Shown here: one piece after another, positions 21,011-62,018 of the stretch
How the letters are laid out: each line of letters starts with the position of its first letter
Numbering within the stretch: the first letter of the stretch is position 1
Source of the DNA: Victivallaceae bacterium
Lineage (GTDB): Bacteria; Verrucomicrobiota; Lentisphaeria; Victivallales; Victivallaceae
Reading direction: 5' to 3'
Assembly (NCBI GenBank): GCA_024405735.1
Contig: JAKSOF010000001.1
Span: 1-64,000, forward strand
Length of the DNA: 64,000 nucleotides
Program-made: the position numbers and the translations under genes
The notes under the pieces: model-generated
What the model was told of the DNA's origin: nothing
The model's input: only the letters and a program-made list of their open reading frames with translations
The model's database searches: none

Positions 21011-21247
21011 GGCTTGTCACGGCGTAGCAGTGCAACTGCGGTGTCATTCTCTACGGACTTTAACGGACCAAACCGACATTAACGGACAAAACGGACGCAT
21101 CATCATTGCGTGATTTTGTCTTTTCCATCACGCTAATTGTCCGTTACTGTCCGTAGAAGTCCGTTATCGTCCGTTTTTGCCTTCATTTCGCGGCGACGTC
21201 CGCGAGACAGACATCAGCGTAAGTGCCTCGCACATCAGGCAGTCGGG
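21011..21247 (+). repeat. Novel intergenic repeat element, copy 1 (about 237 bp)
   Basis: This stretch aligns over its full length, without large gaps, to the reverse complement of 61780-62018. Inside are five ACGGAC-like hexamers (21053, 21063, 21072 as ACCGAC, 21082, 21091), a conserved hairpin GCGTGAT (21108-21114) / ATCACGC (21127-21133), and four GTCCGT hexamers at exactly 10-bp steps (21139, 21149, 21159, 21169), so the whole is an imperfect giant palindrome. A second hairpin CGCGG/CCGCG follows near 21190-21204. No coding frame is conserved. It lies between the convergent divIC and DUF2156 genes. It could be a structured RNA, a protein-binding array or a MITE-like element. Confidence 0.85.
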
Positions 21248-21487
21248 CGGACGAAGCGCGAAAGCGCGAAGTATTAGCCCGCGTGGGACGCGCGTCCTCT
21301 TTGCAGAAACAAACAGAAGAGCCCGCGGAGATTTGCGGAGATATTCGTCGGGAATACGATAAAAGCGTCAGTCCGCAAATATCTGCGGCAGCAGGTACAA
21401 AGTCCAGCCTGTGGCTGGTTGAGGGGAGTTTCAGAGGGGGCGAAACAAGCCCCCTTTGGCTTCCATTGCGTCAAAGTGCGGTAATGC
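21248..21487. other. Structured non-coding stretch between repeat copy 1 and terminator
   Basis: About 240 bases without a credible gene. It contains ATTTGCGGA (21331-21339) paired with TCCGCAAAT (21372-21380), CCAGCC-TGT-GGCTGG (21404-21418), and GGGGGC (21436-21441) / GCCCCC (21449-21454). The density of perfect stems is higher than in other gaps of this window. The role is unknown. Confidence 0.5.
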
Positions 21488-21489
21488 AA

Positions 21490-21530
21490 AAAGGCTGTTG
21501 CTTTCTCCTCAAGTTTTGCAACAGCCCTTT
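21490..21530 (-). terminator. Terminator hairpin after the DUF2156 gene
   Basis: Stem GGCTGTTGC (21493-21501) / GCAACAGCC (21518-21526) flanked by A-rich and T-rich sides, so it can act on both strands. It ends the minus-strand mreB-DUF2156 transcript (tail TTTTTG). Confidence 0.8.
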
Positions 21531-21547
21531 GATTTTTTGACGATCTT

Positions 21548-22441
21548 TTATTTCGTCCGGAGCAAATAGCGTTTGTAGAAACGCTCGGGGTCGAGAGAAC
21601 GTTTCATATGACGCATTTCCGCGTCGTTGTAGTCCTGCTCGCAATTCATAAATTTGGCTTTGCCGTTAAGTTCCATCGCAACCATCCGGGTGAGCGTCTG
21701 CGACGCGCCCTTGATCGAGTGGTCGGCTTTTTCAAAGAGAATATCGACCGTATCGGAGGGGAGGATGTTGTAAATGGAAATTCCGGCGGGGTAATCTTCC
21801 TCGGCATAGAGGATGATGCCCTGAAGTTTCAGTTTTTTGAAATTTTTCAAAGCGATGGTCAAAGCCGCCGTTTCCTCGTCGATGAACTGGCATTGCACCA
21901 GGTGGGAGTTGAGATTCTGCACTAATTTGATGGCGGAATCGATTTCCTTGTCGTCGATGATGCGGACTTCCGCCTTGGGCCAGTTCGCCTGAAATTGTTT
22001 GACGAGATTGTATTTTTTGCGGAGTTTCGGCCCCGCGCAAGTCGCGATCTTTTCGATGGAAAAGAGATAGTCGATCGCCCCTTCATCGTATTCGATGTCG
22101 AAACGGGCATCGCAGTCGGCGTGTTTGTCGAGGAATTCTTCGGGGACGTCGTAGACGGCGCCGTCGCTCAATCCGGCGTCGATGAAAGCGCGGCTGATCC
22201 TGTACAATTCCGACGGGGTCGTCCATTTGCCGATCGGATAATGGATCTGGCGTGCCGGACGCTCGTAGACGACGAGCCGGTCGCCGAGATCGGCGAATTC
22301 GTAACCGTAGAATTCCCGGTAGATGAATAAATTGGCAAAGCAGCATTCACTGCTCTGGCTTTTCATCGTTTTGAGATGACGTTCAAAAAGCGCGCAGTCT
22401 TTGAGTTCGACCGGGCGCAACGTGCTGAGATCGATTTTCAT
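21548..22441 (-). CDS. DUF2156 (LPG-synthase C-terminal-like) protein
   Basis: A 297-residue soluble protein of the DUF2156 family, a double GNAT-like fold related to the catalytic domain of MprF-type aminoacyl-phosphatidylglycerol synthases. Recognisable are SECCFANLFIYREFYGYEF near 30, a central KLRKKYNLVKQFQANWP and the C-terminal KGASQTLTRMVAMELNG with NCEQDYND. No MprF-like membrane domain is attached. Relatives without it have no agreed function; aminoacyl or acyl transfer to an envelope component is an inference. It starts four bases after mreB, implying coupling with cell-shape genes. Confidence 0.78.
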   Translation of the reverse strand: MKIDLSTLRPVELKDCALFERHLKTMKSQSSECCFANLFIYREFYGYEFADLGDRLVVYERPARQIHYPIGKWTTPSELYRISRAFIDAGLSDGAVYDVPEEFLDKHADCDARFDIEYDEGAIDYLFSIEKIATCAGPKLRKKYNLVKQFQANWPKAEVRIIDDKEIDSAIKLVQNLNSHLVQCQFIDEETAALTIALKNFKKLKLQGIILYAEEDYPAGISIYNILPSDTVDILFEKADHSIKGASQTLTRMVAMELNGKAKFMNCEQDYNDAEMRHMKRSLDPERFYKRYLLRTK

Positions 22442-22445
22442 GATA

Positions 22446-23471
<1,026 letters not shown>

Positions 23472-23500
23472 AACTCACCTTGTTTTCTGTAATTTTTTAT

Positions 23501-23564
23501 AAAGTGCTGATGTTATGTATAATTATATCACCGAAAGCGCGAAAATACAAATCAAAGTGCTGAT
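23501..23564 (-). promoter_or_regulatory. mreB promoter between two direct repeats
   Basis: Minus strand: -35 TTGTAT (23550-23545), 17 bases, -10 TATAAT (23527-23522). The 11-mer ATCAGCACTTT occurs at 23564-23554, just upstream of the -35, and again at 23511-23501, downstream of the -10; starts are 53 bases apart. The placement is compatible with looping or a two-site regulator. Confidence 0.6.
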
Positions 23565-23586
23565 TTTTTTGCACTTTTCCTTGCGT

Positions 23587-23630
23587 TGAAAAGGAAACGG
23601 CGCTTCGCCGTCGGAAACGGGAAGCGCCGT
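23587..23630 (-). terminator. Terminator of gdhA
   Basis: A 10-bp stem, ACGGCGCTTC (23597-23606) with GAAGCGCCGT (23621-23630). On the minus strand it is followed by TTTCCTTTTC. Confidence 0.75.
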
Positions 23631-23643
23631 CGGAAAGACCGGA

Positions 23644-24987
23644 CTATATGCCGAGGTCGATCATCGCGTCGGCGACTTTGCGGAAGCCGGCGATGTTGGC
23701 GCCCATGACGTAATTGTCGGGTTCGCCGAACTCGGCGGCGGCGTTGCGCGCCGAATTGTGAATGTTGATCATGATGTTGTGGAGCCGGTTGTCGACTTCG
23801 CCTGCATCCCAGCTCAAACGCATCGCGTTTTGGCTCATTTCGAGACCGCTGGTCGCGACGCCGCCGGCGTTGGAAGCCTTGCCGGGCGAGAAAAGCAACT
23901 TATTCGATTGGATGAACTGGGTCGCTTCGAGTGTCGTCGGCATGTTGGCGCCTTCGCAGACGCAGATGCAGCCGTTGGCGACGAGCGCCTTGGCGTCGTC
24001 GAGATCAAGTTCGTTCTGCGTGGCGCAGGGGAGCGCGACATCGCAGGACGTGATCTGCCAGGGGCGCTTGCCCTCGTAGTATTTGGCGCGGGGGAAGCGT
24101 TCGGCGTATTCGCGGATGCGGCCGCGTTTGACGTTTTTGAGTTCGCGGATGAAAGCCTGTTTTTCGGCGTCGATGCCGTCTTCGTCGATGATACAGCCGT
24201 TGGAGTCGCTGCAGGAGATCACCTTGCCGCCGAGGTGCGTCGCCTTGACGATCGCGAACTGCGCGACGTTGCCGGATCCGGAAACCATGATGCGTTTGTT
24301 TTCAAGATCCTGATTGCGGGTGGCGAGCATTTCAAATGCGAAGTAGACGCAGCCGTAACCGGTCGCTTCGGGACGGACGAGACTGCCGCCCCAGTTGAGA
24401 CCTTTTCCGGTAAGGACGCTGTCGTAACTGTTGACGATCTTTTTGTACTGACCGAAAAGGAAACCGATCTCGCGGGCGCCGACGCCGATGTCACCGGCGG
24501 GGACGTCGGTCGAAGCGCCGATGTGACGGTAGAGTTCACGCATGAAACTCTGGCAGAAAGCCATCACTTCGCGGTCGCTCTTGCCCTTGGGGTTGAAATC
24601 GGCACCGCCTTTGCCGCCGCCCATCGGGAGCGTCGTGAGGCTGTTTTTGAAAATCTGTTCAAACCCGAGGAACTTCAGGATGCTGAGGTTGACCGACGGA
24701 TGGAAGCGCAGACCGCCTTTGTAGGGACCGATCGCGCTGTTGAACTGGATGCGGTATCCGGTATTGATCTGAAATTCGCCTTTGTCGTCGATCCAAGGCA
24801 CCTGAAAGGTGATCGTGCGCTCCGGAATGACGATGCGTTCGAGGATCTTGTTTTTTTCGTACTTCGGAGAGGCGTCCAGCAATTTGGAAATGGAGCCGAC
24901 GACTTCGGTCACGCTCTGGACGAATTCCGGTTCATTGCTGTAGCGGCTCTTGACGTCGCTCAACACGTTCTGCGCATACTGGTTCAT
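23644..24987 (-). CDS. gdhA: Glutamate dehydrogenase (GdhA type)
   Basis: A 447-residue hexameric-type enzyme linking 2-oxoglutarate, ammonia and glutamate. Substrate motif KGGLRFHPSVN, catalytic PMGGGKGGADFNPKGKSD region near 120-135, DVPAGDIGVGAREIGF and the dinucleotide motif SGSGNVAQFA identify it; length and GKSDREVM suggest the NADP-preferring anabolic class. The ATG at 24987 has GAAGGGA upstream; earlier in-frame starts overlap the promoter. Monocistronic, with its own promoter and terminator. Confidence 0.95.
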   Translation of the reverse strand: MNQYAQNVLSDVKSRYSNEPEFVQSVTEVVGSISKLLDASPKYEKNKILERIVIPERTITFQVPWIDDKGEFQINTGYRIQFNSAIGPYKGGLRFHPSVNLSILKFLGFEQIFKNSLTTLPMGGGKGGADFNPKGKSDREVMAFCQSFMRELYRHIGASTDVPAGDIGVGAREIGFLFGQYKKIVNSYDSVLTGKGLNWGGSLVRPEATGYGCVYFAFEMLATRNQDLENKRIMVSGSGNVAQFAIVKATHLGGKVISCSDSNGCIIDEDGIDAEKQAFIRELKNVKRGRIREYAERFPRAKYYEGKRPWQITSCDVALPCATQNELDLDDAKALVANGCICVCEGANMPTTLEATQFIQSNKLLFSPGKASNAGGVATSGLEMSQNAMRLSWDAGEVDNRLHNIMINIHNSARNAAAEFGEPDNYVMGANIAGFRKVADAMIDLGI

Positions 24988-25045
24988 TTTTCCCTTCTTC
25001 CTTGCATGCTTTTCGCCGGAATACCCCGGCTTGGTAAATCCATTT

Positions 25046-25074
25046 AATATAACGCGAAAAAGAGTTTTTTTCAA
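25046..25074 (-). promoter_or_regulatory. gdhA promoter
   Basis: Minus strand: -35 TTGAAA (25074-25069), 17 bases, -10 TATATT (25051-25046). Confidence 0.65.
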
Positions 25075-25132
25075 CAAAAAATCGCTTTGTTTCGACGAAA
25101 AAAAAGAAAAAATTCAACTTTGCGCAAAGCGG

Positions 25133-26269
25133 TTAAGGTTCGCAGAGGTAACTTTCGCCCGCGGAAAACTTTTTCGCCACCCGGAAAGGGACCCAAGTCG
25201 GTTTGCCGTCGCTTTCGCTTTGCCATGAATTGCTGACGGCGATCTCGTCGGTGAGCAGATTGTAACCGACGATGAGACAGGCGTGACCGCAATCTTCTTT
25301 GGGCAGAGAGTTCCGCTTGCTTTTGGTGATCTTGTTGCGGCGCCATGATTTCGGGTCGCCGCCGCGCAACTGCGTGTTGCGGGAGCGGATGTCTTCGTAT
25401 CGCGGGTCGGCGAAAAGGATCCAGACAAGCGGCGTTCCGTTGTCGATCGCCTTCCGGATCGCCGGAAACGCGATGTCGCCCTGATTGCGGATGTTGATGC
25501 CGACACTGCGGAAAATCGGGGAGATCTTTTTGTAAGAGTCTTTGAGTTGCGTTCCGTCCTCCCGGTCGCTGTTGAAAAGCGCCGCCAACTGGTGCATCCC
25601 GACGGAATCGATTTCGTAATAGCGCAATATCCGCGCGTAAGTCGCCGGAACGCAGTAACCTTTGCCGCCCTGATCGATTTGCGGGATGACGAGAAAGACG
25701 TCGCCGAAAGAATTTCTCCGGATCCGTCCCGGCAGATCAAGCTGCCGGATCTTTTTGCGGACATCGCCGGAACTTTGCATCTGCGGTGTTTTCCCCGGGG
25801 GATAGATATGCAATATGACGTAATCTCCGGCATCGGCTTCAAGCGCGAAAACAGCGTCGGGCGTTTCCCAGATTTCCGCCTTGTTCTTGAAACGGGCAAG
25901 TCCGAATTTGCCCTTTTCCGGTTTGCCCGCCAGCCGGGTGAGATCGTCGTGCAAGTGCTTTTTCGCCTGTGCGATCGCGCGGCGGGCGTGGTCGGCGACG
26001 TCGCCTTTGTTGCTGAAAACGATCTCGACCGAAGTGATTTTGTCCTGATCGAGATGATACTTCAATTCCTGCGCCATGACGCCGCAGAAAAATGTGTTGC
26101 GCAAATATGCCGATTTTAATTTATCGTCGCCCGGCAGTCGGAGTCGGGCATCGTATTGCCACGCGTCGTTGAGGAGCGGATAGCCGATCCAGCGGTTCCA
26201 CTTCTCCACCGCCGCATGGGATGTTTGCGCCCAAAAAAGAAAAGCGAAAAGCAGACAGATTTTTTTCAT
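25133..26269 (-). CDS. Exported C39-like cysteine peptidase family protein (larger paralogue)
   Basis: A 378-residue protein with a signal peptide (MKKICLLFAFLFWAQTSHA, cut after Ala). The N-terminal 170 residues have no clear family; the C-terminal half carries the C39-like motif GKGYCVPATYARILRYY (Cys near 207), then GHACLIVGYN with the His and SNSWQSE with the Asn/Asp position. The motif order equals that of the protein at 2823-3566. The extra N-terminal domain sets it apart and may recognise a substrate. A periplasmic or secreted peptidase or transpeptidase is likely; the substrate is unknown. The start is fixed by the signal sequence, though no good ribosome-binding site precedes it. Confidence 0.75.
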   Translation of the reverse strand: MKKICLLFAFLFWAQTSHAAVEKWNRWIGYPLLNDAWQYDARLRLPGDDKLKSAYLRNTFFCGVMAQELKYHLDQDKITSVEIVFSNKGDVADHARRAIAQAKKHLHDDLTRLAGKPEKGKFGLARFKNKAEIWETPDAVFALEADAGDYVILHIYPPGKTPQMQSSGDVRKKIRQLDLPGRIRRNSFGDVFLVIPQIDQGGKGYCVPATYARILRYYEIDSVGMHQLAALFNSDREDGTQLKDSYKKISPIFRSVGINIRNQGDIAFPAIRKAIDNGTPLVWILFADPRYEDIRSRNTQLRGGDPKSWRRNKITKSKRNSLPKEDCGHACLIVGYNLLTDEIAVSNSWQSESDGKPTWVPFRVAKKFSAGESYLCEP

Positions 26270-26277
26270 GATGAAGT

Positions 26278-26305
26278 AATATAATCCGCATTCCGGAATA
26301 ATCAA
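26278..26305 (-). promoter_or_regulatory. Promoter of the larger C39-like gene
   Basis: Minus strand: -35 TTGATT (26305-26300), 16 bases, -10 TATATT (26283-26278), only nine bases before the ATG, which implies a very short leader. Confidence 0.5.
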
Positions 26306-26320
26306 GCTCCGGCATGGTTT

Positions 26321-26348
26321 TTGACATTTATGAAAGCGGTGCTATAGT
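26321..26348 (+). promoter_or_regulatory. Promoter of the NAGPA-domain gene
   Basis: -35 TTGACA (26321-26326), 16 bases, -10 TATAGT (26343-26348). Among the best matches to the consensus in the window. Confidence 0.75.
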
Positions 26349-26386
26349 AAAACAACACAGTATCATTTAAATCAAGGAACGGAGAA

Positions 26387-27262
26387 ATGAATAAAAAAGC
26401 GTTGTTTTGCCTTTTTGTTTTTTGTTTTGCCGTATTGCTTTTTGCGAAACCGCTTGACTGGTTGCGTGCCAAGGAAGTTCAGTCGGGGGTGAAACTCATC
26501 ACGATCGACCGCGAAAAGCCGCGGTTGCAGAAAATCAATGTGATGCGCATCGACCTCGGCAACCGCAAACTCCGTTTCGCCGCGACGGGACGCAATGTGG
26601 ATTACGGCAAACCGATGCCGGATTATCCGCAAGTGACGATCCAGACCAAGCGGATAACAACGGCGGAATTTGTCGATTCGCTACAGCAGAAGAAACTCAA
26701 CGTGATCGTCGCCGCCAATGCCGCGCCGTGGAAGCCGTGGACGAAACCTTATACCCACAAGTACGGTTTTTTAAGCGGATTGAATATCGGTCACGGGCAA
26801 GTCGTTTCCGACGACCACAGACACGGCGCCGTCTTTTTGGTGCACAACAACGGCAAGGCGGAAATATGGACGAAGCCGGTGCCGGAAAAACTTTATCCCA
26901 AGTTGCAGATCGCCGTTTCCGGCTTTTCTCCGATCTTGCTCGACGGCAAAATCGCCACCGATGACAAAACGCATTGCGATCCCCGTATGGCGTACGGTTT
27001 GTCCAAAAACAGGCGGAATCTTTTTCTGATCACGGTCGACGGCAGACAACCCGGCTGGAGCGAGGGGGCGACGCTGACCGAACTCGCGCAGCTGATGATC
27101 GACGCGGGAGCGAGCGACGCGCTCAATATGGATGGCGGCGGTTCCACGACGCTCCTCTACGTCGACCGGGGAAGGAAAAACTGCGTGATGGTCAACCGTC
27201 ATACGACAGGCGGTTACGCCCGTCCGGTCGCGAGCAATATCGCGATCTATTTGGAAAAATAA
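26387..27262 (+). CDS. Exported phosphodiester glycosidase (NAGPA-domain) family protein
   Basis: A 291-residue protein with a signal peptide (MNKKALFCLFVFCFAVLLFA). The rest is a single NAGPA/DUF2233 domain: IVAANAAPW early, RMAYGLSKNRRNLFLITVDGR, then GATLTELAQLMIDAGASDAL and the hallmark NMDGGGSTTL. The family includes the human uncovering enzyme and bacterial wall- or exopolysaccharide-acting proteins. The action here is likely periplasmic on a sugar phosphodiester or peptidoglycan-linked sugar; the exact bond is unknown. Single gene, convergent with dus six bases away. Confidence 0.85.
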   Translation: MNKKALFCLFVFCFAVLLFAKPLDWLRAKEVQSGVKLITIDREKPRLQKINVMRIDLGNRKLRFAATGRNVDYGKPMPDYPQVTIQTKRITTAEFVDSLQQKKLNVIVAANAAPWKPWTKPYTHKYGFLSGLNIGHGQVVSDDHRHGAVFLVHNNGKAEIWTKPVPEKLYPKLQIAVSGFSPILLDGKIATDDKTHCDPRMAYGLSKNRRNLFLITVDGRQPGWSEGATLTELAQLMIDAGASDALNMDGGGSTTLLYVDRGRKNCVMVNRHTTGGYARPVASNIAIYLEK

Positions 27263-27268
27263 GGCGGT

Positions 27269-28138
27269 CTACTTTTCGCAAAGTGCGCGAAACTGCGGGC
27301 TTGCCGCTCCCCAGAGCATCCGCGCGATCTCAAGTTTTGCGCCGCGCGGCGGATTTTTGGCGCAAAAAACGCGGAAAAATTCCTCTCTTCCCGTTTCGGC
27401 GTCGGGCGCATCCTTTTTTTCACAACGGCGCAGAAGATAGGGGTCGCGCATCCAGTTGCGGGCGATCATCAATCCTGCGGCGCGGCATTCGCCGAGGAGG
27501 GCAAAGGATACCGCCGAGTCGTCGAGATCGCCGTTGAGGACAAGGGGGATGTTTCCCGCCATTTCCGCAGCGGCGAGAAACCGCTCCCGGCGGTTGGCGA
27601 TTTCGTTATAGGCTTCCGCGACCGTCCGGCAGTGATAGAAAAAACGATCGACCGCGCCCGAAGCGGCAACTCCCGGCAAAAAATCCCCGATCTCGCGCCA
27701 GTCGGTACTGCCCGAACGGAATTTAAGCGAAAATTCCCGGTTCCCGACGGCTTCTTTGACGGCGCGGCAGATTTCGGTGATCTGCGACGGCTGTTTCAGC
27801 ATCGCGCCGCCGGAATGGTGGCGGACGACGCGCTTGCTCGGACATCCGCAGTTGAGATTGATGCCGCTTGCACCGAGTGAGATCCCTCTTTTTGCCGTTT
27901 CGGCGAGAAGCGCGGGGTCGTCCCCCATCAGTTGAAGCACGACCGGCTTGCCCGAAGCGAGAAAACTTTTCAAAAAGCGCGCGACCGTTTTCTGCGGCGG
28001 CGCGATTTCAGAAACCCGCAGAAAAGGCGTCATCCAGCGCGAAACAAGATCCAGTTCGTTGACTGTGCCGACGAACTCCTCGTGCGCGACGCCTTCCATC
28101 GGGCCGGGCCAGAATTGATAATCGCTTTTTTTTGTCAT
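27269..28138 (-). CDS. tRNA-dihydrouridine synthase family protein
   Basis: A 289-residue FMN-dependent TIM-barrel enzyme reducing uridine in tRNA. The N-terminal PGPMEGV, LQLMGDDP, and the active-site NLNCGCPSKRVVRHHSGGAML with C99 are characteristic, followed by FSLKFRSG and HCRTVAEAY in place of the common HGRT. The short length and HCRT variant make subfamily (DusB versus DusC-like) uncertain. The ATG at 28138 is preferred; an upstream start would add 37 residues with no homology. Confidence 0.87.
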   Translation of the reverse strand: MTKKSDYQFWPGPMEGVAHEEFVGTVNELDLVSRWMTPFLRVSEIAPPQKTVARFLKSFLASGKPVVLQLMGDDPALLAETAKRGISLGASGINLNCGCPSKRVVRHHSGGAMLKQPSQITEICRAVKEAVGNREFSLKFRSGSTDWREIGDFLPGVAASGAVDRFFYHCRTVAEAYNEIANRRERFLAAAEMAGNIPLVLNGDLDDSAVSFALLGECRAAGLMIARNWMRDPYLLRRCEKKDAPDAETGREEFFRVFCAKNPPRGAKLEIARMLWGAASPQFRALCEK

Positions 28139-28176
28139 ATTTATAAAATATATGGGGAAAGCCTTTTTTTCCACCC

Positions 28177-28205
28177 TTGATAAATCAAAAGGGAAGGGGT
28201 ATTTT
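28177..28205 (+). promoter_or_regulatory. Promoter of pfp-gatC-gatA
   Basis: -35 TTGATA (28177-28182), 17 bases, -10 TATTTT (28200-28205). Confidence 0.6.
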
Positions 28206-28263
28206 AAAAGAACGGCAAAATTTTTCGTCAGAAAAAGACAATTCAACATAGGAGAAACGTTTT

Positions 28264-29913: not shown

Positions 29914-29915
29914 CT

Positions 29916-30221
29916 ATGGCGGACTCCAAGATCGACATCGCCTATGTGGCGCAGCTGGCGCGGCTCGAACTCGATCCCGCGCAAGCTGAAAAACTGCAGG
30001 GAGAGCTGGGCAATATCGTCCGGTATATCGATAAACTCGCCGAGCTCGACGTCACCGGCGTCGAGCCGACGGCGCACGCGATTTCGCGGCGCAACGTCTG
30101 GCGCGAAGATGAGGTGCGCGACTCTTTCCCCCGGGAAACGATGCTCGCCAACGCCCCCGATCTAGTCGATGAGACATTGATCAAAGTGCCGCAGGTCCTG
30201 CCGGGGGAGGGGAGCAATTAA
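29916..30221 (+). CDS. gatC: Asp/Glu-tRNA amidotransferase subunit C
   Basis: A 101-residue GatC. Start helix VAQLARLELDPAQAEKLQGE, then YIDKLAELDVTGVEPTAHA and the conserved LREDEV-like WREDEVRDSF, ending with IKVPQVL. It stabilises GatA in the GatCAB complex that makes Gln-tRNA and/or Asn-tRNA by transamidation. Directly followed by gatA; gatB is not in this window. Confidence 0.94.
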   Translation: MADSKIDIAYVAQLARLELDPAQAEKLQGELGNIVRYIDKLAELDVTGVEPTAHAISRRNVWREDEVRDSFPRETMLANAPDLVDETLIKVPQVLPGEGSN

Positions 30222-30222
30222 A

Positions 30223-31707: not shown

Positions 31708-31708
31708 C

Positions 31709-50738: not shown

Positions 50739-51068
50739 GTGAAAAAGATCATCTTTTCGGCGCTTTTTGCCGTTTTCACCGCAGGATGCTATTTGATGTA
50801 TCCGGCGGTGGAAAAATCCAAAAATCTCCGCGTCGGTATGACCAAGGAGGAAGTGCTTGCCGTCATGGGCGAACCTTTGTCCGAAGAAGCCTTTTGCCGT
50901 CCCAATATCTGGTTTTACTACACGCGGACCGTCTGGGCGGACGGGTTGACCACCGAGGATGAATGTATGCCGCTGGTCTTTATCGAAGGACGGCTCGCCG
51001 GATGGGGCAACGAGTACTACAACGACTACCGCATGCGCCCGAAATATCTGCGGGAAATCAAACAGTGA
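50739..51068 (+). CDS. BamE/SmpA-like small lipoprotein
   Basis: A 109-residue lipoprotein starting at a GTG preceded by AAGGGAAGGG. The signal peptide ends in the lipobox FTAGC. The mature part has the SmpA/OmlA hallmark LRVGMTKEEVLAVMGEPL, followed by beta strands with WFYYTRTVW and PLVFIEGRLAGWG. BamE helps outer-membrane beta-barrel assembly, but several small lipoproteins share this fold, so the exact role is open. Its stop overlaps the next GTG start. Confidence 0.8.
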   Translation: MKKIIFSALFAVFTAGCYLMYPAVEKSKNLRVGMTKEEVLAVMGEPLSEEAFCRPNIWFYYTRTVWADGLTTEDECMPLVFIEGRLAGWGNEYYNDYRMRPKYLREIKQ

Positions 51069-52695: not shown

Positions 52696-52698
52696 CGT

Positions 52699-53778: not shown

Positions 53779-55552
53779 CGCAGAGAGCGATTTCCCGTTT
53801 CAGCGCATCGACGATCCCGGCAAAGTAATCGAGCGCGGCATGCACCGGGGCGGGGGTGGAGAGATCGACTCCCGCGTCGCGCATGATGTCCAGCGCATCC
53901 TTGGAACCTCCCGCCGAGAGGAAACCGAAATAGCGTTCCGTCTTTCCATTAAGAATGTCTTTGGCAAGTTTCAGCGCCGCGCTCATTCCCGTCGCGTATT
54001 TGTAGACGTAGAAATCGTAGTAGAAGTGGGGAATTCTCGCCCATTCGAGCGCGATGAGGAAATTTGCCTTGACATCGGGACCGTAATAAAGCTGATTGAG
54101 TTCGTAGTAACACTTTTCCAGCATATCGGCGGAAAGCGGGATCCCCTTTTCGCAGCAAGCGTGGATCTTTTCCTCAAATTCCGCAAACATCGTCTGCCGG
54201 TAGATCGTCCCGCGTATTTCATCGGCGAGGTGCCCGTACAAATAGGCGCGAAAAGCGTGATCGCCGCGGCTCTTTTTCAGCAGATATTCAAAGAGCAGTA
54301 TCTCGTTGGTGGTACTGGCGACTTCGGCGACGAAAATCTCGTAATCCGCATAGTGGTAACTCTGATGCGTTTTGCTGTAATACGTGTGCAGCGAGTGACC
54401 GAGTTCATGGGCGAGGGTAAAGACGTCGTTGAGCGTGCCGTTGAAGTTCAAAAGCAAATAGGGATAACTGTCGAAACAGCCGCTTGAGTATGCGCCGGAG
54501 CGTTTTCCTTTGCGTTCGGGAGCGTCGATCCACTTTTCGGCAAAGGCGCGGTCGAGGATCTTGCCGTACTCTTTGCCGAGCGGAGCAAGCGCCGCCTTGA
54601 CCAGACGTTTCGCCTCGTCAAAGGTGTAACGTTTGCGGCAATCAGGCAACAGCGGATTGTAGATGTCGTACATGTCGAGTTTGTCGAGCTTCATCACCTC
54701 TTTGCGCAGGGCGATATAGCGGTAAAAGGCATCCAGGTGATCGTGCACCGCCGAGATCAGATTGTGGTAGACGTCGGTCGGGATCGCGTCGCCGTCGAGC
54801 GCGGCGCAGAGGGCGGAATCGTAATGACGCAACTGCGCTTCGGCGACGTGGACTTTGACGTTGCCCTCCAGCGTCGAAGCAAAGGTGTTGCGGAACTTTT
54901 TGTAGGTCTTGTAGAGTTTTTCAAACGCCTTCTTGCGTACATTGCGGTCGGCGGATTCGAGAAATTCGAGGTAATTGCCGTGGGTGAGGGGGACTCTTTT
55001 GCCATTTTCGTCGACGGTTTTTGCGAAGTCCAGTTCCGCATCGTTGAGGATCTCAAAGGTGTCGGAGGCGTTGCCGAGCGCGTCGGAAAGGATGCCGAGC
55101 ATTTTTTCCTCGGCTTCGCTCAAAGAATGTTTTTTTCTCCGCAAAATGAAGCGGATGGTGTACTCGTAAGGCTTCAGCGCTTTGCTCCGCAGGAATTTTT
55201 CAATTTTTTCGTCGGGGATCGCCAGAAGTTCGGGGTCGAACCACGCCTGCGTCGGCGCAAGTTTGGCGAGCAGCGCGGAAACGCGGTCGGCTCTTTCCTT
55301 GTTGACGTTGAGAAGCGTGTTTTCATCGCTTTTCAAATGGGCGAAAGTGTAGACTTTTTCGACCAGACGGTCGAAATCGTCGGAGGCTTGGATCGCCTTT
55401 GCCAGCGTTTGGGCGGAGTCGGCGAGCTTGCCCTTGAAAGAAAGAAATTTTTTCGCAAGCGTTTCGATGCGGGCAAAATCTTTTTCCCAAAGGGAAATAT
55501 CCGAGTAAAGGGCGTCAAGATCCCAGACGGGGAGGGCGGGATTTTTTGTCAT
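53762..55552 (-). CDS. pepF: Oligoendopeptidase F
   Basis: A 596-residue M3B zinc peptidase acting on cytosolic oligopeptides. The zinc motif HELGHSLH is at about 384, with the third ligand Glu in FVAEVASTTNE. The N-terminal helical lid (about 1-200) and SGAYSSGCFDSYPYLLLNF before the active site are typical. The ATG at 55552 is chosen over one nine codons upstream inside the MFS gene end. Together with the MFS transporter and hydE it forms a minus-strand unit. Confidence 0.94.
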   Translation of the reverse strand: MTKNPALPVWDLDALYSDISLWEKDFARIETLAKKFLSFKGKLADSAQTLAKAIQASDDFDRLVEKVYTFAHLKSDENTLLNVNKERADRVSALLAKLAPTQAWFDPELLAIPDEKIEKFLRSKALKPYEYTIRFILRRKKHSLSEAEEKMLGILSDALGNASDTFEILNDAELDFAKTVDENGKRVPLTHGNYLEFLESADRNVRKKAFEKLYKTYKKFRNTFASTLEGNVKVHVAEAQLRHYDSALCAALDGDAIPTDVYHNLISAVHDHLDAFYRYIALRKEVMKLDKLDMYDIYNPLLPDCRKRYTFDEAKRLVKAALAPLGKEYGKILDRAFAEKWIDAPERKGKRSGAYSSGCFDSYPYLLLNFNGTLNDVFTLAHELGHSLHTYYSKTHQSYHYADYEIFVAEVASTTNEILLFEYLLKKSRGDHAFRAYLYGHLADEIRGTIYRQTMFAEFEEKIHACCEKGIPLSADMLEKCYYELNQLYYGPDVKANFLIALEWARIPHFYYDFYVYKYATGMSAALKLAKDILNGKTERYFGFLSAGGSKDALDIMRDAGVDLSTPAPVHAALDYFAGIVDALKREIALCDGKIN

Positions 55553-55556
55553 TTTT

Positions 55557-56849
55557 TTATTCCTGCGTTGATGGTGCATTCTTTTTGCCGAAATCAGCCG
55601 GGAGATTCCGGACGGCGAAAAGCGTCACGGCAAAACTCACGAGCGTCGCCAGAGTCACCCAGAGGTAAAAGAGCTGATATTTCCCGAGCGCAGGAAGATA
55701 CTGCGGCAATTTTTGCAGAATGTCGCCGGAAAAGAGCCCCGGCAGCCGGAGCCCGAGGATCATCAGGCAGGTGAGATATGCAAAAATCGTCGTTTTGAAT
55801 TTGCCGCACTTCCCGGCGAGGAAAAGCATCAGAAGCATATAGCCGGTGAAACCGAATCCGTAGCCGAATTGCTCGACGGAAATGATCGTTGCCTGCAAAA
55901 CCGGATCATGAACGGGGAAAAATGCCCAGATAAGATAGAGCAGATCCGGCACGTTGAGCAACAGTGCCATCGGGAAAAGCGTCTTTTTGAGCCCCCAATG
56001 CGCCGCCGCCCAGCCGCCGATGACGCCGCCCGCCAGCATCGCCGCCACCGCGTAGACACCGTTGAAAAGGCTGTAACGCGCAAGCTCCATCGCGCCGCCT
56101 GCCGGATCAAGCAAAAAGAGTTTGCCGATGATCGTCAGTTGCGCTTCGGCGAAGCGGTAAAAAAGGAGAAAAAGCAAAAATGCTCCGAGGTGCGGCAATT
56201 TGCCCAAGGTCTTTACGGCGTCGAGCCAACTTTGCGCGTCGCGCGTTTCAAGTTGCCGCTCTTTGGGCAGCGTGAAAATATGCCAGAGGGCGAGCGCGAA
56301 AAAAAGGATCGCGGAAAGCCCCAGCGCCTGTTGCCACGATGTGAGCCCGGCAAAAGGTTTCGTATGGGCGACAAAGAGCAGCAATCCGCCGTTGGCGACG
56401 ATCATCGCCGCGCGGTAGCAGACGCTGCGCCAGCCGGAATAAACCGCCTGCCGGTGGTCGTCGAGCGCGACGAGGTAAAATCCGTCGGCGGCGATGTCGT
56501 GCGTCGCCGAAAAGAAAGCCCCCGCGAGCAGAAAATAAAAAAGAATTCCGTGCCAGGTATGCAAGGTGAATGCCGCTACGCCGAAAACGCCGCAGAGCAA
56601 AAACTGCATCGCGACGATCCATTTTTTCTTGGTCGCCGTACAGTCGACGAGCGACGACCAGATCGGCTTGAAAACCCAGGGCATACCGAGGATGCTGACG
56701 GCGTGGGCGATTTTTTCCGGCGGATAGTTCAAGGCGGCAAAGAGGACGACGGCGACTTCGCAGATGATCGCCGCCGGCACGCCTTCCGCAAAATAGAGCG
56801 AAAAGATCCAGCCGGGGAAATGTTGTTTGGCAGAGAGCGTATCGGTCAT
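55557..56849 (-). CDS. AmpG-like major facilitator transporter
   Basis: A 430-residue membrane protein with 12 predicted helices. AmpG/PAT-type features are the start SLYFAEGVPAAIICEVAVVLF, PWVFKPIWSSLVD after helix 2 and the HDIAADGFYLVAL motif after helix 4. AmpG imports anhydro-muropeptides for wall recycling; this protein lies in that group but could carry another substrate. It heads the unit with pepF, whose peptidase could process imported peptides (inference). Confidence 0.82.
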   Translation of the reverse strand: MTDTLSAKQHFPGWIFSLYFAEGVPAAIICEVAVVLFAALNYPPEKIAHAVSILGMPWVFKPIWSSLVDCTATKKKWIVAMQFLLCGVFGVAAFTLHTWHGILFYFLLAGAFFSATHDIAADGFYLVALDDHRQAVYSGWRSVCYRAAMIVANGGLLLFVAHTKPFAGLTSWQQALGLSAILFFALALWHIFTLPKERQLETRDAQSWLDAVKTLGKLPHLGAFLLFLLFYRFAEAQLTIIGKLFLLDPAGGAMELARYSLFNGVYAVAAMLAGGVIGGWAAAHWGLKKTLFPMALLLNVPDLLYLIWAFFPVHDPVLQATIISVEQFGYGFGFTGYMLLMLFLAGKCGKFKTTIFAYLTCLMILGLRLPGLFSGDILQKLPQYLPALGKYQLFYLWVTLATLVSFAVTLFAVRNLPADFGKKNAPSTQE

Positions 56850-56861
56850 CGCGAAACCCTT

Positions 56862-56902
56862 TTTAAATAAAAACGCGGTTCCCTGTTGACGGAAACCGCG
56901 TC
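56862..56902 (-). terminator. Terminator of guaA
   Basis: Stem ACGCGGTT (56873-56880) / AACCGCGT (56894-56901), reinforced by further pairs, followed on the minus strand by TTTTTATTT. It lies directly before the MFS ribosome-binding site. Confidence 0.8.
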
Positions 56903-56918
56903 ACAAAACATATTTCTT

Positions 56919-57902
56919 TTATTCCCACTCGATCGTGGCGGGACCTTTGGGACTCAAATCGTAAAGCACGCGGCAAACGCCCGGCACTTCGGCAAGGATG
57001 CGGTCGGTGATCTTTTTGAGGAGTGCCCAATCCAGTTCCGGCACTGTCGCCGACATCGCGTCGACGGTGTTGACGGCGCGGATGATGACCGGCCAGTCGA
57101 AAACGCGCTTGGCGTCACGGACTCCGGTAGAGCGATAATCGGGCACGACCGTGAAAAACTGCCACACTTTGCCGACCAGCCCCGCCTTGGCGAATTCCTC
57201 GCGCAAAATCGCGTCGGATTCGCGCAATGCATTCAAACGGTCGCGGGTGATCGCTCCCGTACAGCGCACGCCGAGTCCGGGACCGGGGAAGGGCTGACGG
57301 TTGACCATTTCATTTGGCAGACCGAGCGCGGCGCCGACGACGCGCACTTCATCTTTGAAAAGCAGTTTGAGCGGCTCGACCAACTGGAATTTGAGATCTT
57401 CCGGCAGACCGCCGACGTTGTGGTGCGCCTTGACGCCGTGGCTTTCGAGAATATCGGGGTAGATCGTGCCCTGCGCGAGGAAATCGACCTCCTGAAGTTT
57501 GCGCGCTTCCTCCTCGAAAACGCGGATGAATTCGCCGCCGATCACTTTGCGCTTGGTTTCGGGATCCGCGACGCCCGCGAGTTTGTCGAGAAAACGGTCG
57601 GTCGCGTCGACGTAGATCAAATTGGCATCGAGCTGATTGCGGAAAACTTCCACGACCTGTTCGCTCTCGCCCTTGCGCATCAATCCGTGATTGACGTGAA
57701 CGCAGACGAGCTGTTTGCCGATCGCCTTGACGAGCAAAGCGGCGACGACACTGCTGTCCACTCCGCCGGAAAGAGCGAGCAACACCTTGCCGGTGCCGAC
57801 CTGGGCACGGACTTTGGCGATTTGCTCAGTGATGAATTTCTCCGCGAGTTCGGGAGTGTTGATGCGGAGCATGTCCGCGGGTCTCACGTTTTCGTCGATC
57901 AT
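56919..57902 (-). CDS. guaA: GMP synthetase ATP-pyrophosphatase subunit without glutaminase domain
   Basis: A 327-residue protein matching only the C-terminal two thirds of bacterial GuaA. The PP-loop is LSGGVDSS (44-51); GTIYPDILES, LIEPLKLLFKDEVR-like QLVEPLKLLFKDEVR, the dimerisation segment NRQPFPGPGLGVR and the final PATIEWE are all present. The N-terminal class I amidotransferase domain is absent and the upstream 250 bases are non-coding, so ammonia must come from a separate subunit (as in archaeal GuaAa/GuaAb) or be free ammonia. It converts XMP to GMP. Confidence 0.93.
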   Translation of the reverse strand: MIDENVRPADMLRINTPELAEKFITEQIAKVRAQVGTGKVLLALSGGVDSSVVAALLVKAIGKQLVCVHVNHGLMRKGESEQVVEVFRNQLDANLIYVDATDRFLDKLAGVADPETKRKVIGGEFIRVFEEEARKLQEVDFLAQGTIYPDILESHGVKAHHNVGGLPEDLKFQLVEPLKLLFKDEVRVVGAALGLPNEMVNRQPFPGPGLGVRCTGAITRDRLNALRESDAILREEFAKAGLVGKVWQFFTVVPDYRSTGVRDAKRVFDWPVIIRAVNTVDAMSATVPELDWALLKKITDRILAEVPGVCRVLYDLSPKGPATIEWE

Positions 57903-57936
57903 TTTTCTTTATCCTTATATAAAAGAGCGTTGCCTT

Positions 57937-57965
57937 AATATAACAAAAAAAGGACGATTTGTCAA
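57937..57965 (-). promoter_or_regulatory. guaA promoter
   Basis: Minus strand: -35 TTGACA (57965-57960), 17 bases, -10 TATATT (57942-57937), 35 bases before the ATG. Identical boxes to the queF promoter. Confidence 0.75.
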
Positions 57966-58083
57966 TATAAAAAAGCAAAAAATCATCGCTCTTTTTTGAC
58001 GGCGATCCGGCTTTTTTCCGGCACCCTGTTTCGGGAAGAAAAAACGGAAATCCCGTTGTCATATCGTGCCGGGAGGGGAAAAG

Positions 58084-58112
58084 TTGCAATTTTCCGCGAG
58101 GTGTGCTAAATT
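58084..58112 (+). promoter_or_regulatory. Promoter of the 1,180-residue secreted protein
   Basis: -35 TTGCAA (58084-58089), 17 bases, -10 TAAATT (58107-58112). TTATAA directly follows. Confidence 0.5.
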
Positions 58113-58150
58113 ATAACATAGTTGTCCACATTAAGGAAAGGATCATATTT

Positions 58151-61100
58151 ATGAATTACATCAGAAAAGCGGGGTTTGCGATGGCGGCATTGGCGGCGAT
58201 CGGATTGTCGGCGGGAAACGATGTGCTTTTTCACGAGGACTTCAACGTTTTCCGCGGCAAGGGCGCGGCGAACTGGGAAACGCTGAAAACCAGCAGCAAT
58301 ATGGTGGAAGTTTTCGTCCGCGACGGCAACACGTTCCGTCTGCTTTCGCCCAGCGATATGTTTATGCCGATCATGGACCCGGTTTCCGACGGCAAAGTCG
58401 ATCTTGTGATCCGCGCTTACGGTTTCGACCCCAAGTGCAACTACGGTTTCAACGTCAATTTCAGGCAGGACGTCGTGCGGCGCACCGCGCAGAGCATCCG
58501 TTTCTTTGTGCGCGGCAAAAGCGGCAAAATGATCGTCAGTTACGGTACTTACGCCGACAATTTCTTTAAGACCATCAAAAGCGAAAGTTTTGACGTGCCG
58601 GCCGACGTGATGAAAAACGACTGCACGGTCTCCGTCGAATTCAAGGGCGACAAAGCGATCGCCACTTTTAACGGCAAAAGCGTTTCTTTCGACGGTGTCG
58701 GCGGCACGGACGGTCAGTTGAGCATCAACCGCATGAATTTTTTCGACTCGCTCGTTTTGAGTAAATTCGAGGTCTCCGGCAAAAAGACGGAAGCGGCGAA
58801 AAACGCCCGGAAATTCCGCGTGACGCTTCCCGAAGCGCCGATGGGACTTCCGATTTACTGCGACGTCGAATTTTCCGAGCACGGGCTCTTTTACGAAGCC
58901 GTGCTGACGCTTTCCGGCGGCGAGTTTCTGACGCCTCCGGGGCAGGGCAACTACCACGGAATGCGCACCAACCGCATCGATCACCCCTATTTCAAAGTCA
59001 TCACCAAAGACAAAACGATCGAGTACAATCTTCTGGACGGCTTCCTCCACCTCGCCAACAAGGAGATCGCCCCGATCCACGTCTACACGGTCATCTACGA
59101 CAAACCGGAGTGGCCCTTTAAGCGGACGATCCGCTTTTTCAAGCCGCAGGGCGCGTTTGATATGGCGGTCGGCGCGAAGCTCGCCGCTTTCCGTCCCCAT
59201 ATCGATCTCACGATGAAGGACTGGGAAACCATTTTTACACCGGAAGGCAAGACGCTCTTTGCCGGGACTTCGCCGGAAAGTAACGTTTCCGTCATTCTGA
59301 CAAGTTCCCCCGACAAAAAGATCGTCGCCAAATTGCCGCGCACGAGTACGCGCGTCGAAGATGCGATCAATTTCGCCAAAGTCAACCACTTTTTCTACCC
59401 CGGCGAGGCGTTGGATTTCACGCTGACGCTCAAGGGCGCGACTCTGCCCGCCAAAAGCGAGATCGCACTTGCCGACGCCTTTTTGAAGCCGGTGAAAAAA
59501 CTGGAGCTTTCTCCTGAAAAATCCGTTGAAAAACTCGGTCAGCGCGACCTCGCGGTCGAAACCTACCGCATCAAACTGGATGAACTTCCCGTCGGCGTTT
59601 ACCATATCACGGTGAAATCGCAGGATGCGACCATTCCTTTTGACCGCTTTATGGCGTTTGAAGTGATGCCTCTCGACCCCTCGCAGCCGACGGCGGCGCA
59701 AGCTTCGGGACTGCCTTACATCTACAGCGCGTTGACGGAGACCCGCGGGCTCCGCACCGATGCTTTCGACCCTTTCAAACCGTGTGAACGCAACTTCGGG
59801 CACTACGTCAGCGGCACGGTTTTCCTGCCGTGGTATGCGCGCGAAACCAATTTGTACGACACCGTCCATTTCTACGGACGCAAATACTTCGCGTGGCTCG
59901 GCAGCCGCTGTCTTGACAAGTGGCACCTCTCCGAAACTGAAGACATCTGGAAAAACGCCGATGTCGCCCACTTCGGCGTCGAGTTGGAAACGGGCGGACT
60001 CATTGCCCTTTACCGCAGTCAGCGGCTCAAGGAGTTTGTGGAATTCGCCAAGCAGACGAAAGATCCTTTTTACGACATCCCCCGGCTGGAAAAACTCGCT
60101 TTGGTCGACGGCGGCAATATGGAGGCTTTTAGTGGAATGGAAAACCGCAGTCTCGACGCGGAAACCTACCGCTATACGGTGGTGAACCATTTCCCCGAAT
60201 GGCTCGAATTCGCCAACAAGAGCACGGCAAAGCGCATTCACGACAAACTCGTCGAATTGCGCAAGGTCAATCCGAAACTGATGTTCGCCTGCTACGGTCC
60301 CGCGCCGATCTATACCGGCACGTATATGGGACCGGAATTCGCGCTTTACCTCGGTCTGGCGAAAACCAGTCCCGACGACGTCGCCTATTTGCAGTACGAG
60401 GATTACCCCGAACTTTGCGACTATCCCGAATCGCGCGGTTCCTTCTTCCTCGGCACGCTCTCGATGTCGGTGCCGCAGATCCGCATCGCGCCGGAACTTT
60501 ACGGTGACGGGTTCGGCAGCGGCTGTCCCGACGGCGCGGCGTTTTTCGCGCATCCGCCCTACGGCATCGGCGGCAACAACTATTTCTACCGCACGCGCAA
60601 CCGCGTTTACGAGTACATTTACGGCACGGCGTTTATGGGAGATGAAAAATTCCAGTACTGGAACCGTTTCGGCATCCAGCTCGGCGCCGCCCGCTATGAA
60701 CGTCTCGAAAACTTCCTCAAAGCGTGGGGCAACGCGATGCGCAATCTCCCGGTGAAGCCGATGCGCTCCGCCGCCTACGTTTTCAGTATGGATTCGTGGA
60801 ACGCCAACCAGGGCGGCGACGCCCACTTCGCGGTCAAAGGGGTCGAGGGCACCGACGTCGCATTCGTCCTTGAAGCCGCCCAGGTGCGCAAGACGGCGAG
60901 CGCGATGATGCCCTTCATCTATGAAAACGTCAGCAACAACGGTCTCTGCGCCGGTTATCAATTGATGGCGAAAAATCTGAAAAACCTCAAGGCGGAAAAC
61001 TGCGACATCCTCGTGCTGCCGCCGTTGAAAGGGGTTCCCGCCGATCAGCAGAATGAGATCCGCCGCCTCTACAACGAGGGCGTGACGATCATCTGCTCCG

Positions 61101-61693
61101 AGGAGCCGGGCGATCTCGCCGATCTCTTTAAAGTGAAAGACGGCGGCAAATTCGTCAAGGTCAATATGGCAAAAGGTACGGAGAAATTCCTTCCCGGTAT
61201 GGTCGATGCGACGACCGACGTCTGCTTCGGCGGACGCTTTCTTGCCGACGGCGCGGAGGTGCTGATCGACGGCGAGATCCCCGTCCTCTACAAGGCGACC
61301 AACGGCAAGGCGAATGCCTACTTTTTCAACGTGCCGCCGACCACGGCGACTTCCGATATGCTCTGGGAGCGTCACGGCTACGGACGCGTCGTCATCAGCC
61401 AACTGATGATCAAGGCGGTGCAGGAAATTTTTGCCCGCGACAACAAGGTCGAAGTGTTTGCCGACTCCGGTCGTGTCCTCGCGGCGGAAACGGCAAAAGG
61501 CTTCGCTGTCGTGCATCGCAACAACAGTGACGAAGACAAACTTGTCGAATTGACTTTCCGCAAACGCGATCCCAAGGAACATCTCATCTCCTTTGACCGC
61601 GAATACCAGATCTTGCAGGACGATGCCGAAGTGCTGAAAGTGCGTTTCAACACCAAATTCCGCTCGGCGGCGTTTATGGAGATCGGCAGATAG
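58151..61693 (+). CDS. Large secreted glycosidase-like protein
   Basis: A 1,180-residue protein with a signal peptide (about 1-22, MNYIRKAGFAMAALAAIGLSAG). Residues about 25-210 look like a LamG/DUF1080-type beta sandwich (LFHEDFNVF, RFFVRGKSGK, DSLVLSKFEVSG). Beta-rich domains follow to about 530, then a region rich in Trp, Tyr and acidic residues (DKWHLSETEDIW, YEDYPELCDYPE) that may be an (alpha/beta)8 catalytic domain, then about 870-1070 resembling the amidotransferase-like trimerisation domain of GH42 enzymes (RSAAYVFSMDSW, CDILVLPPLKGVPADQQNEI). Catalytic acids cannot be named. AGGAAAGGA precedes the ATG. It is likely a polysaccharide-acting enzyme in the periplasm or outside. Confidence 0.7.
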   Translation: MNYIRKAGFAMAALAAIGLSAGNDVLFHEDFNVFRGKGAANWETLKTSSNMVEVFVRDGNTFRLLSPSDMFMPIMDPVSDGKVDLVIRAYGFDPKCNYGFNVNFRQDVVRRTAQSIRFFVRGKSGKMIVSYGTYADNFFKTIKSESFDVPADVMKNDCTVSVEFKGDKAIATFNGKSVSFDGVGGTDGQLSINRMNFFDSLVLSKFEVSGKKTEAAKNARKFRVTLPEAPMGLPIYCDVEFSEHGLFYEAVLTLSGGEFLTPPGQGNYHGMRTNRIDHPYFKVITKDKTIEYNLLDGFLHLANKEIAPIHVYTVIYDKPEWPFKRTIRFFKPQGAFDMAVGAKLAAFRPHIDLTMKDWETIFTPEGKTLFAGTSPESNVSVILTSSPDKKIVAKLPRTSTRVEDAINFAKVNHFFYPGEALDFTLTLKGATLPAKSEIALADAFLKPVKKLELSPEKSVEKLGQRDLAVETYRIKLDELPVGVYHITVKSQDATIPFDRFMAFEVMPLDPSQPTAAQASGLPYIYSALTETRGLRTDAFDPFKPCERNFGHYVSGTVFLPWYARETNLYDTVHFYGRKYFAWLGSRCLDKWHLSETEDIWKNADVAHFGVELETGGLIALYRSQRLKEFVEFAKQTKDPFYDIPRLEKLALVDGGNMEAFSGMENRSLDAETYRYTVVNHFPEWLEFANKSTAKRIHDKLVELRKVNPKLMFACYGPAPIYTGTYMGPEFALYLGLAKTSPDDVAYLQYEDYPELCDYPESRGSFFLGTLSMSVPQIRIAPELYGDGFGSGCPDGAAFFAHPPYGIGGNNYFYRTRNRVYEYIYGTAFMGDEKFQYWNRFGIQLGAARYERLENFLKAWGNAMRNLPVKPMRSAAYVFSMDSWNANQGGDAHFAVKGVEGTDVAFVLEAAQVRKTASAMMPFIYENVSNNGLCAGYQLMAKNLKNLKAENCDILVLPPLKGVPADQQNEIRRLYNEGVTIICSEEPGDLADLFKVKDGGKFVKVNMAKGTEKFLPGMVDATTDVCFGGRFLADGAEVLIDGEIPVLYKATNGKANAYFFNVPPTTATSDMLWERHGYGRVVISQLMIKAVQEIFARDNKVEVFADSGRVLAAETAKGFAVVHRNNSDEDKLVELTFRKRDPKEHLISFDREYQILQDDAEVLKVRFNTKFRSAAFMEIGR

Positions 61694-61716
61694 GCAAATT
61701 CAATTTGCACCGACCG

Positions 61717-61746
61717 AAAAGGGACTGTCCGGCAGTCCCTTTTTTA
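61717..61746 (+). terminator. Terminator of the large secreted-protein gene
   Basis: Stem AAGGGACTG (61719-61727) / CAGTCCCTT (61733-61741) with T-run to 61746. A smaller GCAAATT/AATTTGC hairpin precedes it (61694-61708). Confidence 0.85.
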
Positions 61747-61779
61747 TTTGTACGCAACGGGAGCAAGAGGGCGCTCACG

Positions 61780-62018
61780 CCGACTGCCCGATATGCAGTA
61801 CTTCCCACGCTGATGTTTCTCTCGCGGATGCCGCCACGAAAGAAAGGCGGAAACGGACGATAACGGACTTCAACAGACGGTAACGGACAATCAGCGTGAT
61901 GAAAAAATGATAAAATCACGCAATGATGACGCGTCCGTTTTGTCCGTTAATGTCGGTTTTGTCCGTAAAAGTCCGTATGGGATGACAGCGCAGCTGCATT
62001 GTTTCGCTGTAATCAGCC
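61780..62018 (-). repeat. Novel intergenic repeat element, copy 2 (about 239 bp, inverted)
   Basis: Reverse-complement copy of 21011-21247, diverged but collinear. Plus-strand positions: ACGGAC-like hexamers at 61853, 61863, 61873 (ACAGAC) and 61883; hairpin GCGTGAT (61894-61900) / ATCACGC (61915-61921); GTCCGT-like hexamers at 61933, 61942, 61952 (GTCGGT), 61961 and 61971. The loop is 14 bases against 12 in copy 1. A perfect stem ACAGCG/CGCTGT near 61985-62010 is added at one end. It lies between the terminator of the secreted-protein gene and the iclR promoter. No gene is visible in 61750-62079. Confidence 0.85.

What the first reader, a model, noticed from the sequence alone, without database searches (positions are those of the whole stretch)
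21011..62018. A novel ~238-bp intergenic repeat family: two diverged, inverted copies 40 kb apart
21011-21247 and the reverse complement of 61780-62018 align end to end with nearly equal length (237 and 239 bases). Similarity is highest in the central part and runs to the edges, but the copies have many substitutions, so they are not recent duplicates: the architecture is being kept. Neither holds a conserved reading frame and both sit in gaps next to terminators. I do not recognise the element from any known family; that is memory, not a search.
Basis: seen in the sequence. Interest (0 to 1): 0.85.

Follow-up and report, generated by a model that had tools for sequence, protein, structure and literature searches.

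The report
Phased GTCCGT-array repeats, four-helix gene linked
The two window repeats are real members of a dispersed, gene-less DNA family built from short sites spaced about 10 bases apart in mirror-image arrays, and in related bacteria the same arrays bracket a small four-helix-bundle gene whose relatives have long been suspected of being part of a selfish mobile element.

Summary
In detail: 21011-21247 and revcomp 61780-62018 are 83% identical end to end. It is incomplete. The genome has about 12 core copies, and the right third of the '238-bp element' belongs to a separate ~40-copy repeat running on to ~21490. The true core is a pair of inverted arrays: 5 ACGGAC hexamers every 9-10 bp, an inner stem-loop, then 4 GTCCGT hexamers exactly every 10 bp. 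Hexamers are conserved, spacers drift without covariation, so this is not simply a conserved RNA stem. No Rfam, phage or plasmid match. In relatives the same arrays bracket or lie beside four-helix-bundle-suffix genes (TIGR04258; S23/IVP fold). Inverted 9/10-bp arrays score >=6 at about a third of 97 such genes, versus 0/291 shuffles and 1/80 control windows. Array motif follows protein similarity. The window genome's only TIGR04258 gene carries the genome's second array family. One gene+array unit is 99% identical between two genera and stops at the array. Gene-deleted copies exist. Best reading: gene-less members of an array-ended, mobile four-helix-bundle element; the link of this exact subfamily to a gene, and the mobility mechanism, are inferred.

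The parts
21011..21052 (+). copy 1, left flank (GGCTTGTCACGGCGTAGCA-GTGCAACTGCGGTGTCAT..), shared by core copies
   Evidence: alignment of 11 copies; CAACTGCGnTGTC..ACGGAC found only in own genome and G008
21053..21096 (+). copy 1, R array: five ACGGAC-type hexamers, starts 21053/21063/21072/21082/21091 (spacing 10,9,10,9)
   Evidence: (10 pattern matches vs 0.48 expected)
21108..21133 (+). copy 1, inner stem-loop GCGTGAT..ATCACGC; not compensated in other copies
21139..21174 (+). copy 1, F array: four GTCCGT hexamers, exactly 10-bp period
21182..21247 (+). module B (TCGCGG/CCGCGA hairpin and CAGGCAGTCGGGCGG), belongs to a more abundant separate repeat
61933..61976 (-). copy 2, R array (five ACGGAC/ACCGAC hexamers read on the minus strand)
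61853..61888 (-). copy 2, F array (four GTCCGT-type hexamers, one GTCTGT, read on the minus strand), 10-bp period
61780..61850 (-). copy 2, module B portion
61716..61744 (+). bidirectional-looking intrinsic terminator next to copy 2
62080..62108 (+). sigma-70-like promoter of the IclR-family gene to the right of copy 2

Best explanation
The window repeats are gene-less members of a class of dispersed elements whose signature is inverted arrays of a short motif repeated every 9 or 10 bp. In relatives such arrays are part of the same unit as a TIGR04258 gene (four helix bundle suffix protein, S23/IVP fold), which they flank or whose four-helix domain they bracket. Most likely the arrays are periodic recognition sites for the multimeric four-helix-bundle protein, and the array hairpin marks the end of a mobile unit; gene-less copies arise by internal deletion and are spread in trans. 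SHOWN: array-gene association, co-variation of array type with protein type, one sharp inter-genus transfer unit ending at an array, internally deleted copies. INFERRED: that the protein binds the arrays, that this exact GTCCGT subfamily descends from a gene-bearing one, and the enzyme that moves it (unknown).
For: 10-bp GTCCGT arrays in 31/149 relatives, 0 with the reversed control pattern. Paired R..F arrays enclosing TIGR04258 genes. Of 97 TIGR04258 loci about a third have inverted phased arrays at score >=6 and 44 at >=5, versus 0/291 shuffles and 1/80 control windows; 19/80 named loci in other phyla at >=5, 0/80 shuffled, e.g. Chthoniobacter flavus. Array genomes carry the gene more often: 26/31 vs 45/118, p=5e-6. 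Of 20 loci fetched only by the array pattern, 4 have the gene alongside. Array motif follows protein similarity: 47/82 nearest neighbours vs null mean 11.2, max 25 of 2000. Own genome: a second standalone family (TCYCANNNN)n, 40 pattern hits vs 0 control; one pair lies just upstream of the genome's only TIGR04258 gene. Prediction test: GTATTC 9-bp arrays occur in all 7 genomes with the matching gene clade among only 16/149 positive, p=4e-8 (two of the seven have only the gene's own array). A 666-bp gene unit is 99.1% identical between two genera and ends at the array in three genomes. Gene-deleted copies in G101 and G007. Fold S23: 2gsc, 2rld.
Against: The own-genome GTCCGT copies have no gene inside and no sequence trace of one; the subfamily with this flank is known only from G000 and G008, and G008 has no detected TIGR04258 gene. 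No clean target-site duplication was found for the window copies. In G011 arrays are single, not inverted. No transposase or RT partner: RT presence does not associate with arrays (13/31 vs 50/118, p=1). Motif-phylogeny agreement could reflect linkage rather than recognition. The 80 named loci were picked by similarity to a query with arrays.
Confidence: 0.55

Rival explanations
1. Regulatory or structural sites: the arrays are binding sites (DNA or 3' UTR RNA) that act downstream of genes, for example in termination, mRNA stability or chromosome organisation, and the four-helix gene is merely an autoregulated user. They spread slowly by recombination and are not a mobile element.
For: Copies prefer 3' sides of genes: 7 of 11 convergent, 0 divergent (rough ORF calls); hexamers conserved in diverged copies while spacers drift.
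Against: Large copy-number differences between species and different motif families per genome; inter-genus unit ending at an array; gene-deleted derivatives.
Confidence: 0.22
2. Ordinary MITE of a conventional transposon: the GTCCGT arrays are transposase sites and the resemblance to arrays at four-helix genes is capture or coincidence.
For: Short, gene-less, dispersed, internal inverted repeats.
Against: Ends are not inverted repeats, no target-site duplication seen; no partner enzyme found, though only Y1 transposase and RT families were searched; the gene-array association is far above chance.
Confidence: 0.13
3. Mutational by-product: short tandem repeats that grow by slippage, and low-complexity protein linkers, explain the arrays.
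For: Unit number varies by whole units; protein linkers are repetitive.
Against: Fixed 9 or 10-bp period with drifting spacers, mirror-image partner arrays in non-coding DNA, and dispersal to gene-less sites are not expected from slippage.
Confidence: 0.06

Closest known systems
23S rRNA intervening sequences (IVS) with S23p/IVP ORF (PF05635), e.g. Coxiella burnetii (PMC4990558)
   Same: Small unit, four-helix-bundle ORF of the S23 family, complementary terminal sequences, sporadic distribution and horizontal transfer; a mobile role for the ORF has been proposed but not shown.
   Different: Not inside 23S rRNA; arrays of phased short motifs rather than one long stem; extra TIGR04258 suffix domain; many gene-less copies.
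REP/BIME sequences with RAYT (Y1) transposase
   Same: High-copy intergenic, inverted, gene-less sequences tied to one gene family.
   Different: No intact Y1 transposase in the genome, no REP-type palindrome design; the protein partner has no known catalytic site.
MITEs
   Same: Short non-autonomous copies; internal deletion derivatives are seen in relatives.
   Different: No terminal inverted repeats or target-site duplication found for the window copies; no transposase.
Avd of diversity-generating retroelements
   Same: Four-helix-bundle protein related to PF05635 (PMC10053308).
   Different: No association with reverse transcriptase here.

Membership tests
TIGR04258 four helix bundle suffix protein (gene partner in relatives) | score above curated cut-off and S23-like four-helix fold | tested here: met
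   68.7 and 63.2 bits vs cut-off 40, TIGR02436 27.9/28.1 vs 24; model pLDDT 92, Foldseek 2gsc prob 1.00, 2rld prob 0.98, but E-values above 0.001; PF05635 below its cut-off
23S rRNA IVS | location within a 23S rRNA gene | tested here: not met
   copies are intergenic between protein genes; no rRNA match in the window
23S rRNA IVS | S23-family ORF enclosed by complementary termini | tested here: inconclusive
   met in kind in relatives' gene-bearing units, not in the window copies
REP/RAYT | Y1 transposase (PF01797) partner | tested here: not met
   only a 53-aa fragment with two stops, below cut-off
MITE | terminal inverted repeats at the element ends | tested here: not met
   inverted arrays are internal; outer flanks are unrelated modules
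MITE | target-site duplication | tested here: inconclusive
   mosaic surroundings hide the ends; ~40-bp direct repeats flank several gene-bearing units in relatives
DGR | linked reverse transcriptase | tested here: not met
   no association of arrays with RVT_1 across 149 genomes
any Rfam family | covariance-model match | tested here: not met
   no match at gathering score or E<=0.5
conserved structured RNA | compensatory changes in the array stem | tested here: not met
   spacer complementarity 1.5/4 within copies vs 1.6/4 between copies, few pairs

The most novel reading that the evidence does not exclude
A new class of mobile element: a four-helix-bundle ring protein with no catalytic domain recognises arrays of 4-5 sites spaced 9-10 nt apart, the arrays form the ends of the unit, and gene-less arrays spread through bacterial genomes by a mechanism not yet described. 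This would also explain the long-puzzling S23/IVP genes.
Probability: 0.35. Interest if true: 0.9.

Novelty: new variant of a known kind. Interest (0 to 1): 0.7.

Why it matters
S23/IVP-family four-helix-bundle proteins have had no known function for decades, and the idea that their ORF serves mobility has stayed untested (PMC4990558). A bacterial family in which the gene is tied to phased inverted arrays, with many gene-less copies and a sharp transfer unit, gives a concrete binding site and substrate to test. It also explains a class of intergenic repeats in this order and in other bacteria.

Tried and rejected
Rfam, phages and plasmids: no match. Viral contigs: one inverted-array hairpin; the flank pattern gave only chance hits in coding genes. 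RNA-stem model: rejected for the arrays. RT partner and Y1/RAYT partner: not supported. Empty-site comparison at copy 1: gene order right of divIC is not conserved in the genus, so no empty site could be defined. Literature: 10 searches in the held library found no report of these arrays; this is not an exhaustive search and preprints are not held. Pentamer matching: own TCYCA arrays have 5 units in 12 of 17, but gene-linked arrays peak at 4, so ring stoichiometry is only a hint.

Full report
OBSERVATION. The two stretches align end to end; copy 2 matches copy 1 at 83% identity, E=3e-65, and the repeat finder returns the same pair as its top inverted arms. The genome (G000, 1.89 Mb, 26 contigs, 97% complete) holds many more: 11 copies with the core, plus one at C6:41709 found by pattern. 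The 172-237 part of the query recurs alone at many further places and runs on into a ~250-bp repeat present at ~40 places. So the '238-bp element' is a core joined to part of another repeat. Copy 1 lies between a convergent divIC-like gene and an LPG_synthase_C gene; copy 2 lies between a terminator (61716-61744) and the promoter of an IclR-family gene. Of 11 copies, 7 are between convergent genes and none between divergent genes, by rough ORF calls.

ANATOMY. The core is an R array of ACGGAC-type hexamers (five in the window copies, starts 10, 9, 10, 9 bp apart), an inner GCGTGAT/ATCACGC stem-loop, and an F array of GTCCGT hexamers exactly 10 bp apart. The sequence folds well because of the inverted arrays (z about -4.2 to -4.3). 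Across the copies the hexamers are nearly invariant, F-array spacers vary up to 1.8 bits per position, and spacers are no more complementary within a copy (1.5 of 4, 8 pairs) than between copies (1.6 of 4). Changes in the inner stem are mostly uncompensated (by eye). The constraint therefore looks like repeated recognition sites rather than a base-paired stem; the sample is small.

DISTRIBUTION. The pattern (GTCCGTNNNN)x3 occurs in 31 of 149 relatives, up to 86 hits in one genome, and the reversed control pattern in none. The subfamily with the window's flank (CAACTGCGnTGTC) is limited to G000 and G008. In G010, G066 and G085 the R and F arrays enclose a reading frame that is a four-helix-bundle-suffix protein: TIGR04258 68.7 bits (cut-off 40), TIGR02436 27.9 (cut-off 24), PF05635 27 bits, below its cut-off (tested on the two G010 proteins). 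An AlphaFold model of a family member from the search for related loci (pLDDT 92) matches the S23-family structures 2gsc and 2rld best (prob 1.00 and 0.98), with E-values above 0.001.

ASSOCIATION. TIGR04258 genes were found in 71 of 149 relatives. I took 97 loci and asked for a 5-mer repeated at a strict 9, 10 or 11-bp period with its reverse complement arrayed nearby. Forty-four loci score >=5 and about a third >=6; 0 of 291 dinucleotide shuffles and 1 of 80 control windows from the same genomes do. Two layouts recur: 10-bp arrays at the start codon and in the linker before the suffix domain, or 9-bp arrays before and after the gene. Of 80 loci from named genomes of other phyla, 19 score >=5 and no shuffle does; these were chosen by similarity to a query that has arrays. 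In Chthoniobacter flavus Ellin428 the gene lies between ATAGG arrays and CCTAT arrays of 9-bp period. Most gene-linked arrays carry a GGAC/GTCC-like core, 3-6 units, mode 4, but not all (GTATTC). Array genomes have the gene more often (26/31 vs 45/118, p=5e-6; within the genus p=0.04). Of 20 loci fetched only by the array pattern (L047-L066), four have the gene alongside. The array motif tracks protein similarity (47/82 vs null maximum 25), as expected if array and gene travel together; this alone does not prove recognition.

OWN GENOME. G000 has one TIGR04258 gene (C22:35116-35259, minus). It lacks GTCCGT arrays, but an inverted pair of TGGGA/TCCCA 9-bp arrays sits just upstream. The pattern (TCYCANNNN)x4 gives 40 hits in the genome and 0 in the control, mostly gene-less inverted pairs ~90 bp apart, and one hit is that gene's array. 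Thus the genome has two gene-less array families, one tied to its resident gene. As a prediction test, GTATTC 9-bp arrays, the type of one gene clade, occur in 16 of 149 genomes, including all 7 known to hold that clade, five of them with 15 to 73 hits; in G029 and G101 there is only a single hit.

MOBILITY. A TIGR04258 unit is 99.1% identical over exactly 666 bp between G029 and G066 (different genera), with unrelated flanks, and its right end, shared by G101, is the last base of a GTATTCAT array. The left ends differ, so this is a single, asymmetric case. In G101 an internally deleted copy (~246 bp) follows an intact gene; in G007 a copy lacks the four-helix domain. In G020, G101 and G011 units are flanked by ~40-bp direct repeats resembling a local host-gene 3' end, mostly more alike within a locus than between loci (by eye). 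These point to mobile units and to a route to gene-less copies. No catalyst is known: reverse transcriptases do not associate with arrays (p=1) and the only Y1 transposase trace in G000 is a broken fragment.

MECHANISM. S23-family proteins assemble from five four-helix bundles (2gsc; title cited in PMC10053308), and Avd of diversity-generating retroelements is related. IVS elements in 23S rRNA carry an S23 ORF between complementary ends and have been proposed to be mobile. I infer that the multimer contacts about one array unit per subunit, and that arrays act as the cis part of the element. Array counts (5 in 12 of 17 own TCYCA arrays; mode 4 elsewhere) are compatible but not decisive.

VERDICT. 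Real, not in Rfam, not described in the literature I could search; best filed as a new variant of dispersed non-coding elements, with a credible case that gene plus arrays form a new class of mobile element.

Noticed in passing
window 21225-21490: A ~250-bp hairpin-rich intergenic repeat at about 40 places in the 1.89-Mb genome, adjacent to but distinct from the array core.
   Followed up: partly
window 1-63: Seven-bp tandem array (ATCTCTC)n at the contig start; CATCTCTCATAACT-like strings recur in intergenic mosaics of this genome.
   Followed up: no
window 58103-61693 (+) / 58106-61582 (-): Long open frames on both strands without any Pfam match.
   Followed up: no
L150 766-1671, L133, L152: A Sel1-repeat gene lies directly beside the transferred four-helix unit; a short piece of it was carried into the third genome.
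   Followed up: partly
L168 (G101), L165 (G020), L167 (G011): Gene-bearing units sit at what looks like the 3' end of a host gene, with ~40-bp direct repeats on both sides.
   Followed up: partly
L278 6844-6917: An inverted GTCCGT array hairpin just after a gene on an IMG/VR viral contig.
   Followed up: no
L133 (G101:C145): Two TIGR04258 genes about 7 kb apart in an island with Fic and WapI-immunity-like genes.
   Followed up: no
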